64,000 nucleotides of DNA, from the NCBI GenBank assembly GCA_001544655.2, contig FCOD02000001.1, positions 248,001-312,000 of the forward strand, given 5' to 3'. The notes under the pieces were generated by a model, which worked only from the letters and a program-made list of their open reading frames with translations, was not told the origin of the DNA and ran no database searches. This document shows, piece by piece, positions 32,933 to 42,822 of this stretch; within the stretch, counting starts at the first letter, position 1, and each line of letters opens with the position of its first letter. This stretch comes from Caballeronia turbans (GTDB lineage: Bacteria; Pseudomonadota; Gammaproteobacteria; Burkholderiales; Burkholderiaceae). The position numbers and the translations under genes are program-made.

Positions 32933-33625
32933 CTAGTCGCCGAACATCCTGACGATCGCGTTCTCGAGATGCGCCTTCATCGCTTTCCCGGCTCGAGCGG
33001 CGTCGCGCGCGCGAATTGCTTCGAGCACTTCCAAATGTTCGCGCTGGACGACGCGCTGCCGCTCGATCGTCTTGACGAACGAAAGATTGCGCGACAGATT
33101 CATGCTGACTTCGACCTGTTCTTCGATGAACGACAAGGCAGTGATGAAGAACTGATTCTTCGACGCTCGCGCAACCGCGAGATGGAACGCGAAATCGTCT
33201 TTTGCGCCGATGCCCTGCCGCGTTTCGACGACGCGCTCAAGCTGGTCCCATGCATCCTGGATCGCGCGGATATCGTCATCGTCAGCCTTGAGGGCGGCGA
33301 ATTCCGCTGCCCCGGACTCTGTCACGATCCGAAATTCGTAGCAGCGGCGGATGTCCGACAGCGTTTCGAGCGGCGCGAAACGGCGCATGTCCGCATCAGG
33401 GCGGCGTCCGACGGTGGTGCCTGAGCCGCGCCGCGTCACGATGATGCCGTCCGCGCGCAGCCGTGCGAGGGCTTCGCGCACGGTCGGGCGAGAGGTCGCG
33501 AACCGTTCGGCGAGCGCGTGTTCGGTAAGGAGCCGATCGCCCTCCTTGAATTCGCCTTCCACGATGCTATTGAGGATGTCGCTGTAGATCCGGTCGGCGA
33601 GTCCGGAGGACTTACGCTCGTTCAT
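32933..33625 (-). CDS. GntR-family regulator, FadR subfamily (FCD domain)
   Basis: 230 residues. The N-terminal winged helix (about 8-75) has GEFKEGDRLLTEHALAERFATSRPTVREALARLRADGIIVTRRGSGTTV. The C-terminal all-helical FCD domain (about 90-220) has the ligand/metal-binding pattern with YEFRIVTESGAAEFAAL, DDFAFHLAVARASKN and REHLEVLEAIRARDAARAGKAMKAHLENA, including the usual His residues. It probably controls the ABC importer in response to a small organic acid or related ligand. Two TTGTnnnACAA dyads lie just after its stop codon, toward the importer. Confidence 0.93.
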   Translation of the reverse strand: MNERKSSGLADRIYSDILNSIVEGEFKEGDRLLTEHALAERFATSRPTVREALARLRADGIIVTRRGSGTTVGRRPDADMRRFAPLETLSDIRRCYEFRIVTESGAAEFAALKADDDDIRAIQDAWDQLERVVETRQGIGAKDDFAFHLAVARASKNQFFITALSFIEEQVEVSMNLSRNLSFVKTIERQRVVQREHLEVLEAIRARDAARAGKAMKAHLENAIVRMFGD

Positions 33626-33778: not shown

Positions 33779-36421
33779 TTACCACTGATGACCCGCGCCG
33801 ATGGTAAACCCGATATTGCCGGAACTGCTGGTGTTACCCGACGCCTTCACCACCCACCGATCGTCCTGCGTCACGTACGAGATACCGATCGCCGCGCCGG
33901 ATGCGCTCGCGTAACGCGCCCCCGCGACGGCCACCATGGTCTTCCCCGGAGCGGTAGGCTGCGGCAATCCGGCTGCGGCCATCGCCGCGGCGATACCACC
34001 GTAAGCCGTGCTGGCGACGTTGTTGATCTGGCTCTGCACGCCAGCGATGCGCGAATCGGTGTAGCTCTGCGCCTGCGCCGATGCCAGGTTCAATTGTCGG
34101 ACGTTGACCGCGTCGGTGTCTTGCGTGCCGTTGGCGACGTTCGTGATCTGACGTTCGTTGCCTGCGGATCCGACCGATACCGTGTTCGCCCGGTCGGCCA
34201 CCGAACTCGCACCGAGCGCGACCGAATTGTCCGCCCTCGCGTTCGCGTTCGCGCCCATCGCGGTAGCGTGGGCGCCGGTAGCGCTGGCAACCTCGGTGTT
34301 GCGATCCCCGTCGGCCGCGAACAACGGATTGCCGCCGCTCTCGGCGATGTTCGTCACGCGGTCGAGCGCGGCGTTCATCTGGTTCACGTTCACGGCATCG
34401 GTGCCCGCAACGCCCGCCGCGACGTTGTGAATCGTCGTCGCGCCGGTGCCATTGCCGAGCGTCAGGTTCGAATAGTCGGCTTTGCCATCCGTACCCGTGT
34501 CATACGTCACGGCTGTTTTCGACGAGCCGTCGCCGTCGATCAGGCCCGCTTGCTTCAACTGCGACACATTGACGGCGTCCGTGTCCTCCGTGCCGGCCGC
34601 CACGTTCGTGATCTGACGCGACGCGTTTGCCGAGCCGACCGAAACGGTATTCGGACGATCCGCCACGGAGTTCGAACCCAATGCCACCGAGTTGGCCGCC
34701 GTTGCCGACGCGCTGCCTCCGATTGCCACCGAGTCCGCGCCCGTCGCGGACGAATCCGGCAGCGTCGAATTGGCGTGGAAGTACTTGATCCCGCCGCCCG
34801 TCGTGATGTTGTTCAGCGTGTCGTTGATCGTGGCGATGCCCGCCGTGTTCTGCGTAACGCGGCCGTCGAGGTTAGCGAGCGCGTCGCCGACGTTGTTGAA
34901 CGTCGAATTGTCGATGAACGTATAGGTCGGCTTGGTGATCTTGCCGTCGGCGTCAACGGATGATCCGCCGCCCAGCGCGTCCGCGGCGCTTTGCGCGGTC
35001 GCAAAGAGTTGCGAGCCGTTGATCGCTTCGTGGCTCGTCTGGTCGACCTTCCCGTTGGCCACGTTGTCGATCGTTACCTGCGCTTGTGGATCCTGCGCAT
35101 GCAGCGTGACTCTGCTGCGCGTCGGATCGTCGTAGGTCACTACGTTTGCAAGGCTCGACGAGATCGTCGAGGTCAATTGCGAGACGTTGACGGCATCGGT
35201 CGCATCCGAGCCGGCCGCGACGTTCGTGATGCGACGCTGCGAGGTCGCCGAGCCCACCGATACCGTGTTCGGCTGATCCGCCAACGAGTTGGAGCCGAGC
35301 GCAACGGCGTTATCCGCAGATGCGATCGCGTTGCCGCCGATCGCCACCGCATCGACGCCGAGCGCGGAAGAATCCGGAAGGGTCGAATTGGTATGGAAGT
35401 ACTTGATGCCGCCGCCGTTGTTGATCGTGCTCAGCGTCGTGTTGATGATGCTGATGTCCGATGTGTTCTGCGTGACGCGGCCGTCGAGGTTGGTGAGCGC
35501 GTCGCCGACGTTGTCGAACGTCGAATTGTCGGTGAACGTGTAGGTCGGCTTGGTGATCTTGCCGTCGGCGTCAACGGATGATCCGCCGCCCAGCGCCTCC
35601 GCGGCGCTTTGCGCGGTCGCAAAGAGTTGCGAGCCGTTGATCGCCTCCAGGCTGGTTGCATCTACCGTCCCAGGCGCGACATTCTTGAGCGTAACCGGCG
35701 AGCCCGGTGTGCCGAACGTAACGCTCGTGTGACCCGGATCATCGTACTGGACGGTGTTGTCCAAGGCGACCGACAGCGAATGGACTCCCGTCGACAACGA
35801 GACGACTGCGGTCGAAGTCGAGGTCGAAAGCGTAACGATGCCGGTTGACAGCGTTGTCACAGCCGTGGAGGTGGATGCGGACAGCGTGTCGATACCCGTC
35901 GACAGAGACGCGATGCCGGAGGTTACCGTGCTGAGGCCGGTGGAAAGCGACGCGACGCTCGATGTCACCGTGCTCAAGCCTGTCGACGTTGAGGTCGACA
36001 GCGAGTCGAGGCCGGAGGTCACCGTGCTGAGGCCTGTGGAAAGAGAATCAACGTTCGATGTCACCGTGCTCAGGCCTGTCGAGGTCGAGGTCGACAACGA
36101 GTCGAGGCCCGAGGTCACCGTACTCAAGCCCGTTGAGGTCGAGGTCGACAGCGAGTCGAGACCGGAACTTACCGTGCTGAGACCCGTGGAAAGAGAATCA
36201 ACATTTGATGCGACTGTACTCAATCCTGTCGACAGGGAACTTACATTGGACGTAACCGTGCTGAGTCCCGTGGACAGCGAGTCCACGTTAGACGTCACCG
36301 TGCTCAGTCCGGTGGAAAGCGAAGCGACGCTCGAGGTCACCGTGCTCAGGCCCGTCGAGGTTGAGGTCGACAGCGAGTCCAGACCAGATGTCACCGTGCT
36401 GAGCCCTGTGGAGAGAGAATC
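33779..36421 (-). pseudogene. Trimeric autotransporter adhesin, 3' fragment (stalk, heads, anchor)
   Basis: This part encodes about 880 native residues: a Ser/Thr-rich stalk, two near-identical head-neck modules, a third partial one, and the membrane anchor. YadA-type head repeats are seen as AVAIGGNAIASADNAVALGSNS and neighbours, necks as NVAAGSDATDAVNVSQL, and the C-terminal beta-barrel anchor as GGIAAAMAAAGLPQPTAPGKTM...VTQDDRWVVKASGNTSS.GNIGFTIGAGHQW, ending with aromatic Trp as the Bam signal. It has been cut from its signal peptide by the IS66 insertion. An open frame reaches back into the IS (to 36484) but lacks export signals, so no surface product is expected. Confidence 0.9.
36414..36421. 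repeat. Target site duplication, left copy
   Basis: AGAGAATC, 8 bp, directly abutting the IS left end. It matches the right copy exactly. Eight-base duplications are the norm for IS66-family elements. Confidence 0.92.
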
Positions 36422-36445
36422 GTACGCGATCCACGAACGACGCCC
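36422..36445. repeat. IS66 left terminal inverted repeat
   Basis: Begins GTACGCGATCC and matches the right end at 17 of 24 positions. It lies downstream of tnpC. Confidence 0.85.
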
Positions 36446-36490
36446 CTCGGAGTAAGGTGGAGAGCGCGTGATGTATGTCAGCAATGCGGG

Positions 36491-38071
36491 TCAGCGGAGA
36501 TCTGCGGGCATCTTCCAAGGAAGCAGCGCGTCGTAGTCGTCAACGGTCCTCGCCAGAGGAAGACGTTGAAACAACCAGTGAAGGTAGCGATAGGGATCGA
36601 TGCCCCCGGCTTTGCAGGTTTCGATCAGGCTGTAGAGGTTTGCACTTGCGTTCGCCCCTGCTACGGTGTCGCTAAAAAGCCATGAGCGGCGCCCGACGAC
36701 GAATGGGCGAATCGCATTCTCGCAAGGGTTATTCGAGATGGCCCAAGTGCCGTTCTCGACGTAGCGGATCAGCTTCGGCCACTGCTCGCGCAGATAGGTC
36801 AGTGCCTTTCCGAGCAAACTTTTTGGTACGACACCCGGCGACTTCGCGAGGGCTAAAGCGTAGATGGCGTCGAGTATGCGCGTGCTGTATCGACGTCGCA
36901 ATCGCTGTCGTCGCTCAGCTGCCCATTGCTTAGAGCGGGCCTCCGCAGCGAACAGCTTGCCGATCAGCGTGATGAAGCGTGTCGCGAGCAGATCGGGCGA
37001 ACGCGCGGCTTTCGGCACGTTCTCCTCCGCTTTGATGAAGTACCGTCTTAGGTGGGCCCAACATCCGAGGTGCACGAGGTCGTAGCGTTGAGCGATGTCG
37101 TTGTAGGGCTCGTAGCCATCAGTCATCAGAACCGCGCCCTTGCGGACCCCCGTGAACAGCTTGTCGGCCAGCTTGGCACCGCGTCCGGGCGTATAGCTGA
37201 AGCAGCGGATGGGGATGCCTGAATTGGTTATCTGCGCCCAGAGGTAGCTCTTCGTTTGCGGCTTGCGCCCTTTCTCTTTCAGTACCTGGAACGTCGTCTC
37301 GTCGCAGTAGATCAGTGTGGCATCGAGCAACGCATCGCGCATGAGGTTGATCACGGGCTGGGTCGCGAGGCCAACGCGAACCATGCTGGCGGCGATCGTG
37401 TTCGACGAGATGTCTCCGCCGAAGCGACACAGCAAACCGGCCTGGCGATAGAGCGGCATGCCGAACTGATATTTGCCGGTGGCGATCCATGCAAGCGCCG
37501 CTTCGCTCAACAGTCCGCGCGCGATGATGCGCGGCGGCGCTGGAGTGACCTTGATGCCGAGATCGCAGCACGGGCACGCATATTTAACGCGCTGGTGTTG
37601 GATCACTCGAAGCTGCTCGGGGATCACATCGAGCTGCTCGCTGATCTCCGCGCCGATCTCGACGAGCGCTTGCCCATCATTCGTGCAAAAGCGTTCGACT
37701 TCGGGCAATTCGTGCCGCACGACCTCGCGCGGCAGATTGGGATCAAGCGGCTTGCGGTGACCGCGCTTCTTGCGCTTGTGCGCGCCAACCGTCGTCTCTG
37801 GCGTGTCTTCTTGGGCAGGCGCGCTGTTCGCGCCGAGCACCTCGGCTTCGTTGAACAAGCCAAGTTGATCAGAATCTCGTGCCTCGCTCTTGGCGCCGAA
37901 CAGTTCGCGACGGTAGGCTCGGAGTCGCTCCTCAGCAAGATCGCGCTCTGCCGTCATAAGCCGCAAGGCGCCGCGTAAGGCCTCCTGTTCTTCTCGCAAT
38001 GCCCGAGCAGCATCGCGCTCGGCGAGCAACGCCTTCAATTCCTCGGCGGTGATCGTGACATTGATCGGCAT
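36491..38071 (-). CDS. tnpC: IS66-family transposase TnpC
   Basis: 526 residues, full length for IS66 TnpC. An N-terminal leucine-rich coiled segment (residues 1-60) is followed by the zinc-binding CPCC (about 166-169) and a DDE catalytic core: Asp257 in IYCDETTFQV, Asp318 in VLMTDGYEPY and the Glu in NNPCENAIRPFVVGRRSWLF. The C-terminal IS66 domain (HWLFQRLPLARTVDDYDALLPW) is complete. It cuts and joins the element ends. Confidence 0.96.
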   Translation of the reverse strand: MPINVTITAEELKALLAERDAARALREEQEALRGALRLMTAERDLAEERLRAYRRELFGAKSEARDSDQLGLFNEAEVLGANSAPAQEDTPETTVGAHKRKKRGHRKPLDPNLPREVVRHELPEVERFCTNDGQALVEIGAEISEQLDVIPEQLRVIQHQRVKYACPCCDLGIKVTPAPPRIIARGLLSEAALAWIATGKYQFGMPLYRQAGLLCRFGGDISSNTIAASMVRVGLATQPVINLMRDALLDATLIYCDETTFQVLKEKGRKPQTKSYLWAQITNSGIPIRCFSYTPGRGAKLADKLFTGVRKGAVLMTDGYEPYNDIAQRYDLVHLGCWAHLRRYFIKAEENVPKAARSPDLLATRFITLIGKLFAAEARSKQWAAERRQRLRRRYSTRILDAIYALALAKSPGVVPKSLLGKALTYLREQWPKLIRYVENGTWAISNNPCENAIRPFVVGRRSWLFSDTVAGANASANLYSLIETCKAGGIDPYRYLHWLFQRLPLARTVDDYDALLPWKMPADLR

Positions 38072-38102
38072 GGCGGGTTAGACCAGCGCACGGCCTCACT
38101 GT

Positions 38103-38456
38103 TCAGCTCACGCGGCGATATTCCTGCTTCGGATGCCGTCGTATCGCGGTGATGTCATCGCCATCGAGCAACGCGTGCAACACGTTGCTCGTCATCGTCA
38201 CGATCTCAGCCTTGTTGTCTGGCCAGATGAAGTGGCTGCTCTCCAATCGTTTTATCAAAAGCCAGAAACCACTGCCGTCCCAGCCAAGAATTTTTATCCG
38301 GTCGCGACGTCGGTTTCCGAAGATGTAAAGCGACGTGTCCATCGGATTTAGGCGCATCGACTGCTCGACGAGAATCGACAGACTGTTCATGCCGTAGCGG
38401 AAGTCGACAGGATCGCGGTGCAGGTAGACCTTCAGATTATCGTCGAACCGGAACAC
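38103..38456 (-). CDS. tnpB: IS66-family accessory protein TnpB
   Basis: 117 residues of the IS66 Orf2 family (PF05717): DPVDFRYGMNSLSILVEQSM, DTSLYIFGNRRRDRIKILGWDGSGFWLLIKRLE. It is required for IS66 transposition, but its exact activity is not known. Its start overlaps the end of tnpA by 25 bp, indicating translational coupling. Confidence 0.95.
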   Translation of the reverse strand: MFRFDDNLKVYLHRDPVDFRYGMNSLSILVEQSMRLNPMDTSLYIFGNRRRDRIKILGWDGSGFWLLIKRLESSHFIWPDNKAEIVTMTSNVLHALLDGDDITAIRRHPKQEYRRVS

Positions 38457-38932
38457 GGCATCCTCCCGAGCATCTGGACCACGGTGGTCAGCTCGTCGAT
38501 GGTCGCCTCTGCGATGTCGAACTCAACACCGTTGGGCAAACGTATGTGCAAGGCAACCGTGATCGATGGTGTGCGCGCGGACACCGCTCCTTCAACCGTC
38601 ACAGCCCCCTGAACGACCGGTACAAATGGTGATGGCACGTCGGGCGCGTGAGTCCGCAAGGCCGGCGGCGTGACATCAAGCGATGCCCTGTCTGCTGGCC
38701 TCAGTTCCTTCTCCGCCAAATTCCGCGCCGCATGTGTCTTCTGATAGCGCGTGATCCACTCGCGCAACAGATTCGGGTTCAAGCCGTATTCCATCGCCGT
38801 ACGTGCTATCGAAACGCCGGACGTCATGCACAACTGGACCAGTTCCTCGCGGGCTTGCGGATCGTATTCCCGGCGACCATCCCGCTTCGCGCCGACTACC
38901 AGACGGCTACGCAAATCTCGATCTTCTGTCAT
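38432..38932 (-). CDS. tnpA: IS66-family accessory protein TnpA (HTH)
   Basis: 166 residues. The N-terminus has a helix-turn-helix of the IS3/IS66 Orf1 type (YDPQAREELVQLCMTSGVSIARTAMEYGLNPNLLREWITRYQ), likely to bind the IS ends. A variable linker follows, then a C-terminal segment (HIRLPNGVEFDIAEATIDELTTVVQML) typical of longer IS66 TnpA proteins. First gene of the transposase operon. Confidence 0.93.
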   Translation of the reverse strand: MTEDRDLRSRLVVGAKRDGRREYDPQAREELVQLCMTSGVSIARTAMEYGLNPNLLREWITRYQKTHAARNLAEKELRPADRASLDVTPPALRTHAPDVPSPFVPVVQGAVTVEGAVSARTPSITVALHIRLPNGVEFDIAEATIDELTTVVQMLGRMPCSGSTII

Positions 38933-38994
38933 GTACTCTCATCCCAGCTGTCCACGTGGACAGGTAGCATCAGAGAATCACTCGTCCATTGCTA

Positions 38995-39018
38995 GGGCGT
39001 CCCTGAAGGACCGCATAC
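38995..39018. repeat. IS66 right terminal inverted repeat
   Basis: Read inward it starts GTATGCGGTCC, pairing with the left end. It lies upstream of tnpA. Confidence 0.85.
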
Positions 39019-39026
39019 AGAGAATC
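39019..39026. repeat. Target site duplication, right copy
   Basis: AGAGAATC, identical to the left copy, directly following the IS right end. Confidence 0.92.
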
Positions 39027-39180
39027 AACATTAGATGTAACCGTGCTCAAGCCTGTCGAGGTCGAGGTGGACAGCGAGTCGAGACCGGAGGTCACCGTGC
39101 TCAAACTGGTCGAGGTCGAGGTCGATAACGAGTCGAGGCCTGAGGTCACCGTGCTCAGGCCGGTCGAGGTTGAGGTCGAC

Positions 39181-40058
39181 AGCGAGTCCAGACCGGAGTT
39201 CACCGTGCTGAGCCCTGTGGATAGCGAACTCACGCTAGACGTGATGGTGCTCAAACCCGTAGACAGCGAGGTCACACCGGACGTCACCGTGCTCAGCCCG
39301 GTGGAGAGCGAAGCGACGCTCGAGGTCACCGTGCTCAGGCCCGTCGAGGTTGAGGTCGACAACGAGTCCAGACCAGATGTCACCGTGCTGAGACCGGTGG
39401 AAAGAGAACCAACATTCGATGTAACCGTGCTCAAGCCCGTCGAGGTCGATGTCGACAACGAGTCGAGACCGGAGGTCACCGTGCTCAAGCCCGTCGAGGT
39501 CGATGTCGACAGCGAGTCCAGACCGGAGTTCACCGTGCTGAGCCCTGTGGATAGCGAACTCACGCTAGACGTGATGGTGCTCAAACCCGTAGACAGCGAG
39601 GTCACACCGGACGTCACCGTGCTCAGCCCGGTGGAGAGCGAAGCGACGCTCGAGGTCACCGTGCTCAGGCCGGTCGAGGTTGAGGTCGACAGCGAGTCGA
39701 GACTGGAGGTCACCGTGCTCAAACTCGTCGAGGTCGAGGTCGACAACGAGTCGAGGCCTGAGGTCACCGTGCTCAGGCCCGTCGAGGTCGAGGTTGACAA
39801 TGAGTCCAGACCGGAGGTCACTGTGCTGAGACCTGTGGAAAGAGAATCAACTTTCGAAGTAGCCGTGCTCAAGCCCGTCGAGGTCGATGTCGACAGTGAG
39901 TCCAGACCGGAGTTCACCGTGCTGAGCCCTGTGGATAGCGAACTCACGCTAGACGTGATCGTGCTCAAACCCGTAGACAGCGAGTTCACACCGGACGTCA
40001 CCGTGCTCAGCCCGGTGGAGAGCGAAGCGACGCTCGAGGTCACCGTGCTCAAACCCGT
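39181..40058. repeat. Three copies of a ~160-bp block in the adhesin stalk
   Basis: A block beginning at 39181 recurs at 39511 with identity over about 160 bp, and again with a few changes near 39895. Spacings are 330 and 384 bp, both multiples of 3. These larger duplications overlie the short 42- and 54-bp stalk units and show recent in-frame expansion. Confidence 0.8.
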
Positions 40059-41410
40059 CGAGGTCGATGTCGACAGCGAGTCGAGACTGGAGGTCACCGT
40101 GCTCAAACTCGTCGAGGTCGATGTCGACAACGAGTCGAGACCGGAACTTACCGTGCTGAGCCCCGTGGAAAGTGAATCAACGTTCGAGGTAACTGTGCTC
40201 AAACCTGTCGACAGCGAGCTCAGGCCGGTGGAAAGCGAAGCGACGCTAGACGTCGCCGTGCTCAAACCCGTCGACGTCGAACTGGACAGTGAATCGAGGC
40301 CCGAGGTCACCGTGCTCAGGCCCGTCGAGGTCGAACTCGACAGCGAGTCCAGACCGGAACTTACCGTGCTGAGACCCGTGGAAAGTGAATCAACGCTCGA
40401 GGTAACCGTGCTCAATCCCGACGAGGTTGAACTCGATAACGAGTCCAGACCTGAACTCACCGTGCTGAGACCCGTGGAAAGAGAACCAACATTCGACGTG
40501 ACCGTGCTCAAGCCGGTCGAAACCGAACCCGACAGCGAGTCGAGACCTGAACTCACCGTGCTCAATCCCGTCGACAACGAACTCACGTTCGACGTCACAG
40601 TGCTCAAGCCAATCGAAACCGAAGTCGACAGTGAATTGACACTTGAATTCACCGTGCTCAGACCCGTCGAGAGCGAATTCACTCTGCTTGACGCCGTGCT
40701 CAGGCCTGAGGACATCGAACTGGACACCGTGAAGAGCTGAGAGCCATTGATCGCGTCCAAGCTAGCGGCATTCACAAGTCCGGGCGCCAGTCCCGTGATC
40801 TTGTCCCGGTTCATGTTGATCTGCGCGTATGCGTTGATCGTGGTCATACTGGTGCCGGGATCTGTGACAATGGTCAGCTGGTCGGCACCCGCGGTACCGA
40901 ACACAAGCGTGTTGGAGTCCGTAGCGACGGCATAAGCGCCCACCAGCGCAGCCTGGTCAAACGCGACAAAGCCCACTCCAGTCTTGCCACCGCTGTCACA
41001 CGCTGCGCCGCCCTGCGGACCGCTAGCCGTCGATGAGAAGCAGTTCACATATGCGTCCGCGTCGAAGACACCATTTACATAGCTATTCGCATCCACCGCG
41101 TGCGCCGTTCCGCCCGCAAACGTAGCCATCGCGGAGGCAGCCACAACCGCCGATCGCTTCGTGCTCTTCCCCTTGGTCCGAGCAAATTCATGCGCAACCA
41201 CCCACTCTCCAGACGCCTGACTCCACACCACCTTATACGTTTTGTTCACTCGAAACCTCGTAGATTCAATCGCTCAACATTCACGACTCGGCATGCGCCC
41301 GCTCGCCAGGACAGATAAATGAAACAGCTTGTGATTTCTTGCATTTAGTTTGCGGCCGGTCGGCCAGCATTCGAATTCAGGATCTTCAGTGGCGTAGATA
41401 TGACCAAATA

Positions 41411-41985: not shown

Positions 41986-42822
41986 TCAAATCGACAACAA
42001 CTTCCGCGCCTCCTGCGCCGTCGCCACCGGCCTTCCATACTCCGCGCACAGCGACGCCACCCGACTCACCAATTGCGCATTGCTTTTCGCGAGCGTGTCC
42101 TTGTCCCAGCGCACGTTGTCTTCCAGCCCCGTGCGACAGTGCCCGCCCAACTGCAGCGTCCAGTGATTCACTTCGAGCTGATGACGCCCGATGCCCGCAG
42201 CGGTCCACGTCGCATCGGGCAAGTTCTTCTTCAACTGCTCGACTTCGAATTCGAGAATCTCGAGCCGCGCGGGCAAGGCGTTCTTCACGCCAAGCACGAA
42301 CTGAACGTGCACGGGTGACTTCAACAAGCCCTGATTCACCAGATCGACGGTGTTATAGAGCATCGCCAGATCGAAAATCTCGATCTCGGGCTTCACATTG
42401 TGATCGAGCATCATCTGCGCGAGCGAGCGTACGAAGTCGGGCGGATTCTCGTAGACGATCGTCGGAAAATTGACCGAGCCCGTCGCCAGCGACGCCATGT
42501 CAGGCTTCAAGTCGAGCATCGCGCCGCGCTGCTCGAACGAGCGTCCGCGCCCGCCCGTCGAAAACTGGATGATGATGTCCGGGCAATGCTTGCGGATGCC
42601 CTCCTGCAAGTCCGCAAACCGATGCCGGTCCGAGCTGGAGCGTTCATCTTCATCGCGCACATGCAGATGCACGAGCGTCGCGCCCGCTTCATACGCCTCA
42701 TGCGTACTCTCGATCTGTTCGGCGATCGTGATCGGCACGGCGGGATTGTCCTTCTTGCGGGGGACCGAGCCGGTAATGGCAACCGATATCACGCACGGTT
42801 CTTTCGTAGGGGATTGGGTCAC
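41986..42822 (-). CDS. BKACE family 3-keto acid cleavage enzyme (DUF849)
   Basis: 278 residues with a GTG start preceded by AAGGAGC. The TIM barrel of the beta-keto acid cleavage enzymes is supported by VISVAITGSVPRK, GATLVHLHVRDEDE (zinc-binding His pair), IIIQFSTGGRGR and QLGGHCRTGLEDNV (conserved Gly-His and Glu). These enzymes condense a beta-keto acid with acetyl-CoA to give acetoacetate and a new CoA ester; 3-keto-5-aminohexanoate is the archetype. Several subgroups exist and the substrate here is not evident. It is monocistronic. Confidence 0.92.
   Translation of the reverse strand: MTQSPTKEPCVISVAITGSVPRKKDNPAVPITIAEQIESTHEAYEAGATLVHLHVRDEDERSSSDRHRFADLQEGIRKHCPDIIIQFSTGGRGRSFEQRGAMLDLKPDMASLATGSVNFPTIVYENPPDFVRSLAQMMLDHNVKPEIEIFDLAMLYNTVDLVNQGLLKSPVHVQFVLGVKNALPARLEILEFEVEQLKKNLPDATWTAAGIGRHQLEVNHWTLQLGGHCRTGLEDNVRWDKDTLAKSNAQLVSRVASLCAEYGRPVATAQEARKLLSI

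What the first reader, a model, noticed from the sequence alone, without database searches (positions are those of the whole stretch)
33779..41249. Adhesin knocked out by a precise, potentially reversible IS66 insertion
Seen: an intact IS66-family element (36422-39018) lies in a trimeric autotransporter gene, flanked by the 8-bp repeat AGAGAATC. I joined the two gene parts after removing the element and one repeat: the combined length is 4866 nt, divisible by three, and the junction reads on as NVDSLSTGLST. All three transposase genes and both ends look functional, and neither gene fragment shows other damage, so the insertion appears young. Inference: excision or recombination could restore a 1621-residue surface adhesin, making the insertion a phase switch or a recent loss during laboratory or niche adaptation.
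Basis: partly seen in the sequence, partly recalled or inferred. Interest (0 to 1): 0.75.

Follow-up and report, generated by a model that had tools for sequence, protein, structure and literature searches.

The report
Jumping element breaks stalk adhesin gene
In a Caballeronia bacterium a mobile element has jumped into the gene for a long surface adhesin and split it, and several related species carry similar breaks in this gene or in other adhesin genes, so it looks like recurrent loss of a surface protein rather than a built-in on/off switch.

Summary
A complete 2,597-bp IS66-family element (36422-39018, AGAGAATC on both sides) splits a YadA-type trimeric autotransporter adhesin (TAA) gene in a Caballeronia genome. 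Both fragments are open (741 and 877 codons), coordinates keep the frame, and the transposase genes are intact; the halves were not joined. Seven relatives have an uninterrupted gene at this locus, so the insertion is derived. No same-species strain was available.

New: it is not a one-off. Of 37 same-genus genomes with the neighbouring GntR gene, the adhesin is intact in 7, broken in 5 (this IS or a close relative 2, IS256-type 1, stop codon 2), a remnant in 1, absent in 20, unscorable in 4. Of 53 mapped insertion sites of the element and its relatives, 4 lie in TAA genes. Outside the window, 3 of 25 close sites do, against about 0.05-0.09 expected. A weak target motif does not explain it: 3 of 4 TAA sites score below the median.

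Best reading: recent loss of function, part of recurrent adhesin loss. A phase switch has no direct support, although in-phase direct repeats across the element make rare reversal conceivable.

The parts
39027..41249 (-). 5' fragment of the trimeric autotransporter adhesin gene (GTG start, ESPR signal, stalk; 741 codons)
   Evidence: N-terminal part 58-75% identical to the best six relatives
33779..36413 (-). 3' fragment of the adhesin gene (stalk, head repeats, YadA anchor, stop; 877 full codons)
36414..36421 (.). 8-bp target duplication AGAGAATC, copy at the left end of the element
39019..39026 (.). 8-bp target duplication AGAGAATC, copy at the right end of the element
36422..39018 (-). IS66-family insertion element, 2597 bp, transposase genes on the same strand as the adhesin gene
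36491..38071 (-). tnpC, 526 aa, DDE_Tnp_IS66 with zinc-finger, leucine-zipper and C-terminal elements
   Evidence: D257, D318, E451 invariant in 17 aligned homologues
38103..38456 (-). tnpB, 117 aa
   Evidence: TnpB_IS66
38432..38932 (-). tnpA, 166 aa, overlaps the start of tnpB
   Evidence: HTH_Tnp_1
36422..36445 (+). left terminal inverted repeat
   Evidence: 17 of 24 match the right end
38995..39018 (-). right terminal inverted repeat
32933..33625 (-). GntR-type regulator gene, downstream neighbour used as anchor of the locus
41986..42822 (-). BKACE/DUF849-like gene (name recalled, not searched), upstream neighbour of the locus

Best explanation
A structurally intact IS66-family element that circulates among Caballeronia species transposed into the stalk-coding repeats of a trimeric autotransporter adhesin gene, recently, and inactivated it. 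The 5' product would have the signal but no anchor, the 3' product an anchor but no signal, so neither should reach the surface as a trimer (inferred). It is one case of a recurrent process in the genus: TAA genes, at this locus and elsewhere, are broken by this element, by other elements and by stop codons, most likely because they are long, dispensable and sometimes disadvantageous surface genes. Shown: the insertion, its integrity, uninterrupted orthologues, independent breaks in relatives. Inferred: loss of function, and tolerance or selection as the cause.
For: Intact element with 8-bp duplication; open fragments; syntenic uninterrupted orthologues in 7 genomes; same locus broken in G021 by this IS or a close relative in the opposite orientation at another site, in G072 by a Mutator/IS256-type element with TCGCCCCG on both sides (read by eye from the letters printed), in G015 and G030 by in-frame stops, remnant in G073, absent in 20; further TAA genes hit by the same element in G073 and G010.
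Against: Loss of function is not measured. Two of the 'breaks' (G015, G030) are single stop codons in draft genomes and could be sequencing errors. Absence in 20 genomes may partly be late gain rather than loss. The excess of TAA hits rests on 3 events outside the window, one of which (G021) was seen before the systematic count.
Confidence: 0.8

Rival explanations
1. Reversible phase switch: the element leaves precisely through its 8-bp repeats, or is lost by recombination between stalk repeats, so that populations hold ON and OFF cells, as cited for IS256-family elements in Staphylococcus and Pseudoalteromonas.
For: Frame kept, duplication perfect. 25 of 25 exact direct repeats of at least 20 nt (longest 55) between the stalk stretches on either side of the element are in one codon phase. 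Stalk length varies in the genus (stop-to-stop frames of 960-1771 codons). Precedent cited in PMC5649170 (passages).
Against: No empty allele seen; nothing on IS66 excision as a switch in the searches. Other genomes show permanent kinds of damage to the same gene.
Confidence: 0.07
2. Insertion hotspot: the element prefers TAA stalk DNA as a target, because of its motif, its repeats or its DNA structure.
For: 3 of 25 close sites outside the window are in TAA genes; expected 0.049, or 0.088 with 25 kb of TAA per genome; P 2e-5 and 1e-4. A weak motif, about NWTYRANC, is seen in 49 other duplications, and strong matches are twice as dense in this stalk as in the rest of the window (6.5 against 3.1 per kb; also above shuffles).
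Against: 3 of the 4 TAA sites score below the median of the other sites, and 10 of 251 ordinary windows reach the stalk's density at the next lower cut-off. Other elements also hit TAA genes (G072; second IS66 in G073). If G021 is left out too, because it was noticed before the count, 2 events remain against about 0.045-0.08 (P about 0.001-0.003, worked out by hand).
Confidence: 0.3
3. Assembly artefact: the element was placed in the repeat array by the assembler.
For: Stalk repeats break contigs in relatives (G009, G029, G021); the genome is a 120-contig draft.
Against: Known element ends abut a perfect 8-bp duplication with the frame kept, and only one full copy was found in this genome, so there is no second copy to confuse it with.
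Confidence: 0.03

Closest known systems
ata adhesin gene interrupted by ISAba26 in Acinetobacter baumannii NCIMB8209 (PMC7392541; passages read)
   Same: A trimeric autotransporter adhesin gene broken by an insertion element in an environmental strain, as part of wider loss of surface structures.
   Different: Another genus and another named element; there a single strain, here breaks by several means in several species.
IS256 phase variation of biofilm genes in Staphylococcus and Pseudoalteromonas (cited in PMC5649170; passages read)
   Same: An insertion element in a surface or adhesion gene with a short target duplication.
   Different: There reversal is reported; here no reversal was or could be observed.
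Copies of the same IS66 element in Caballeronia zhejiangensis OP-1 and C. catudaia LMG 29318 (L024, L025)
   Same: Full-length, 99% and 98% identical, same ends, own 8-bp duplications GATCGAAC and GAACAATG.
   Different: Inserted at other places; their flanks gave no adhesin match.

Membership tests
IS66 insertion-element family | tnpA, tnpB and tnpC with DDE transposase of the IS66 type | tested here: met
   Pfam hits over curated cut-offs for all three genes; D257, D318 and E451 invariant in 17 aligned TnpC (that these are the catalytic triad is recalled)
IS66 insertion-element family | 8-bp target duplication (recalled as typical of the family) | tested here: met
   this copy and paired ends in G017, G029, G006, G073, G010 and G021
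IS66 insertion-element family | imperfect terminal inverted repeats | tested here: met
   17 of 24
YadA-type trimeric autotransporter adhesin (type Vc) | extended signal peptide, stalk, head repeats and C-terminal YadA anchor | tested here: met
   found in the two fragments, searched apart
YadA-type trimeric autotransporter adhesin (type Vc) | surface display and adhesion | not testable with these tools
   gene is split; no experiment
IS-mediated phase variation | insertion with target duplication and preserved frame | tested here: met
   frame by coordinate arithmetic
IS-mediated phase variation | reversal at a measurable rate, empty alleles in the population | not testable with these tools
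   one assembly per species; no reads

The most novel reading that the evidence does not exclude
IS66 elements circulating in Caballeronia land in trimeric autotransporter genes far more often than chance, so that element and stalk-repeat genes form a recurrent inactivation system. Since all long repeats found across the window's element are in codon phase, recombination between them could give a slow, imprecise resetting with changed stalk length.
Probability: 0.15. Interest if true: 0.62.

Novelty: new member of a known kind. Interest (0 to 1): 0.38.

Why it matters
A single insertion in an adhesin gene is ordinary. That one element family, other elements and stop codons break the same surface gene in different species of one genus suggests that these large adhesins are gained and lost with lifestyle. 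It gives a concrete set of loci on which selection for loss can be told from insertion preference.

Tried and rejected
A phase switch was considered and kept only as a rival: no empty allele of the same strain could be looked for. Target-motif preference was tested and explains at most part of the excess. Outward promoters were scanned for: 0 sigma-70-like sites in 36300-39200 (shuffles 0.7) and 2 terminator-like sites (shuffles 1.9). The extra AGAGAATC inside the right end (38972) is part of the element: the last 100 bp are identical in five other copies. The tRNA scan gave nothing. Searches of the held papers: 0 papers with Caballeronia, trimeric autotransporter and insertion sequence; 0 with Caballeronia, IS66 and insertion sequences; 5 with IS66 and trimeric autotransporter (passages of one read, the other four seen as listing only); listings brought nothing on this case, judged from titles and abstract starts except where passages were read. 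Passages of PMC5001619 (an IS66 table row seen without its column headers, not used), PMC3826837 and PMC9208149 did not bear on it.

Counts corrected on the way: one search used 26 sites outside the window; one G010 'site' (CTCTCATC) is the element's own sequence, and repeats the sum with 25. The tally of 53 is 53 printed flank words minus that one plus GATCGAAC counted twice (two genomes). Unpaired ends (G030, G061, G063, G066, G080 and others) are counted as separate sites, so 53 may be too high. Matches that stopped short of a terminus were dropped (at least L215, L235, L261, and the 76% copy in L107). The TAA lengths used for the expectation come, with estimates of mine for parts of G010, G061 and G073. 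The 21 of 58 genomes without a GntR hit at E 1e-80 were not surveyed at the locus. In the tree the long branch of G062 is an artefact: its OmpR match is a 33% paralogue and no BKACE match was found.

Full report
What is there. The window lies in a 7.35-Mb, 120-contig draft genome. The genus is Caballeronia: contigs of same-genus genomes have the same lengths as named Caballeronia records (G017:C82 and C. zhejiangensis OP-1, G029:C34 and C. catudaia, G004:C67 and C. pedi), and these three also hold the closest named TnpC relatives, 98, 98 and 94%. The species is not known to me. A gene on the minus strand, 41249 down to 33779, encodes a trimeric autotransporter adhesin (TAA). Its 5' fragment carries the ESPR signal and stalk, its 3' fragment stalk, head repeats and YadA anchor. 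It is interrupted by a 2,597-bp element at 36422-39018 with AGAGAATC on both sides. The element has tnpA, tnpB and tnpC, imperfect inverted repeats (17 of 24) and a TnpC whose D257, D318 and E451 are among the residues invariant in 17 aligned homologues. The halves were not joined.

Age. The fragments are open over 741 and 877 codons. From 373 possible stop-making single changes in them, and 269 more in the transposase genes, neutral divergence since insertion is below about 2.4% (adhesin alone) or 1.4% per site (with the transposase genes) at 95%. This is the only full copy found in this genome; two short, weaker matches exist elsewhere. Full copies 99% and 98% identical sit at other places in C. 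zhejiangensis and C. catudaia with their own duplications. Recent arrival from the genus pool is an inference. The genome has one other gene with a YadA anchor.

The locus in the genus. In the ten relatives first fetched the adhesin lies beside the same neighbours as in the window. The GntR neighbour was found in 37 of 58 same-genus genomes, the window's own included, at E 1e-80; the other 21 were not surveyed. In the 37: one open frame in 7 (G004, G005, G006, G007, G011, G062, G068; stop-to-stop 960-1771 codons); split by an insertion element in 3 (G000 here, G021, G072); in-frame stop in 2 (G015, G030); remnant in 1 (G073); contig break inside the stalk in 2 (G009, G029); contig end before the locus could be read in 2 (G061, G064); absent in 20. 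In a tree of neighbour proteins from 34 of the 37 the states are interleaved: G000 groups with G067 (absent), G009 and G006, and G021 with G017 (absent). The five lesions differ in kind or place, so they are independent.

The G021 case. Contig C13 runs from the GntR gene through the 3' part of the adhesin and ends 77 bp inside an element whose right end is identical to the window's, in the opposite orientation and with the flank AGTTCGTT. The other three right ends found in G021 pair with left ends by their duplications; this one's partner was not found, as expected if it lies in the unassembled stalk. Left ends in G021 are 87% identical over 67 bp, so its element may be a close relative rather than the same.

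Other adhesins. End probes over 58 genomes found the right end in 14 and the left end in 15 at E 1e-12. Fifty-three sites could be given an 8-bp flank (as corrected in Tried and rejected). Four lie in TAA genes: the window; G021; G073, where a 98% copy sits in another TAA gene with CGTCGACT on both sides and a second, different IS66 element follows further down; and G010, where both ends with GTTCAACT abut one fragment with ESPR and one with the anchor. In G020 a 76% relative sits at the broken end of a YadA-like gene but its flanks do not match, and it is not counted. Nine genomes that carry the element have 1-5 YadA anchors each, so TAA genes are about 0.3% of a genome at most by my lengths. 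Outside the window, 3 of 25 sites with an end at least 95% identical are in TAA genes; 0.049 are expected, or 0.088 if 25 kb of TAA is allowed per genome. Over all 52 other sites the expectation is 0.19 and P about 0.001. Caution: G021 was noticed before the count began. Without it 2 events remain against about 0.045-0.08, P about 0.001-0.003 by hand.

Why there. The 49 duplications outside TAA genes show a weak preference, about NWTYRANC. The window's stalk has about twice the density of strong matches found in the rest of the window (6.5 against 3.1 per kb), but 10 of 251 ordinary windows reach its density at the next lower cut-off, and 3 of the 4 TAA sites score below the median of the other sites. 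Other elements also hit TAA genes: a Mutator/IS256-type one in G072 and a second IS66 in G073. Tolerance or selection for loss is favoured over insertion preference alone, but not proven.

Reversal. Twenty-five exact direct repeats of 20-55 nt lie across the element, all 25 in one codon phase. Recombination between such repeats could in principle remove an element and keep a frame, at the price of stalk length. Nothing here shows that it happens in this strain, and no bench step to bring it about is proposed.

Known context. A TAA gene (ata) interrupted by ISAba26 in an environmental Acinetobacter strain that also lost other surface structures is in print (PMC7392541, passages). Reversible insertion of IS256-family elements in biofilm genes is cited in PMC5649170 (passages). 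The searches brought nothing closer in the held library. The case is a new member of a known kind, with an unexpected recurrence across the genus.

Noticed in passing
L252 (G073:C1:588000-605000) and L267 (G073:C1:604000-612000): A TAA gene of roughly 17 kb with two different IS66-family elements in its stalk and a further break between 1818 and 3145 of L267.
   Followed up: partly
L174 5101-6640 (G072): The orthologous adhesin gene is split by a Mutator/IS256-type element whose own transposase lies in two overlapping frames; TCGCCCCG stands at both ends by eye.
   Followed up: partly
L272 2452-4248 and 51-2726 (G010:C18): The 5' part of the G010 adhesin lies in two overlapping frames, so that gene may carry a frameshift besides the IS66 insertion, or an assembly error.
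   Followed up: no
window 39043-40740, + strand: A 565-aa open frame antisense to the stalk, a by-product of the repeats keeping both strands open; a long antisense frame also overlaps stalk DNA in L128 (G030) and L252 (G073).
   Followed up: no
L027 and L107 (Burkholderia sp. S171 / G020): A 76% identical IS66 relative sits at the broken end of a YadA-like gene without matching flanks, perhaps after a rearrangement.
   Followed up: partly
window 38972-38979: A third AGAGAATC lies inside the element's right end; it belongs to the element and looks like coincidence.
   Followed up: yes
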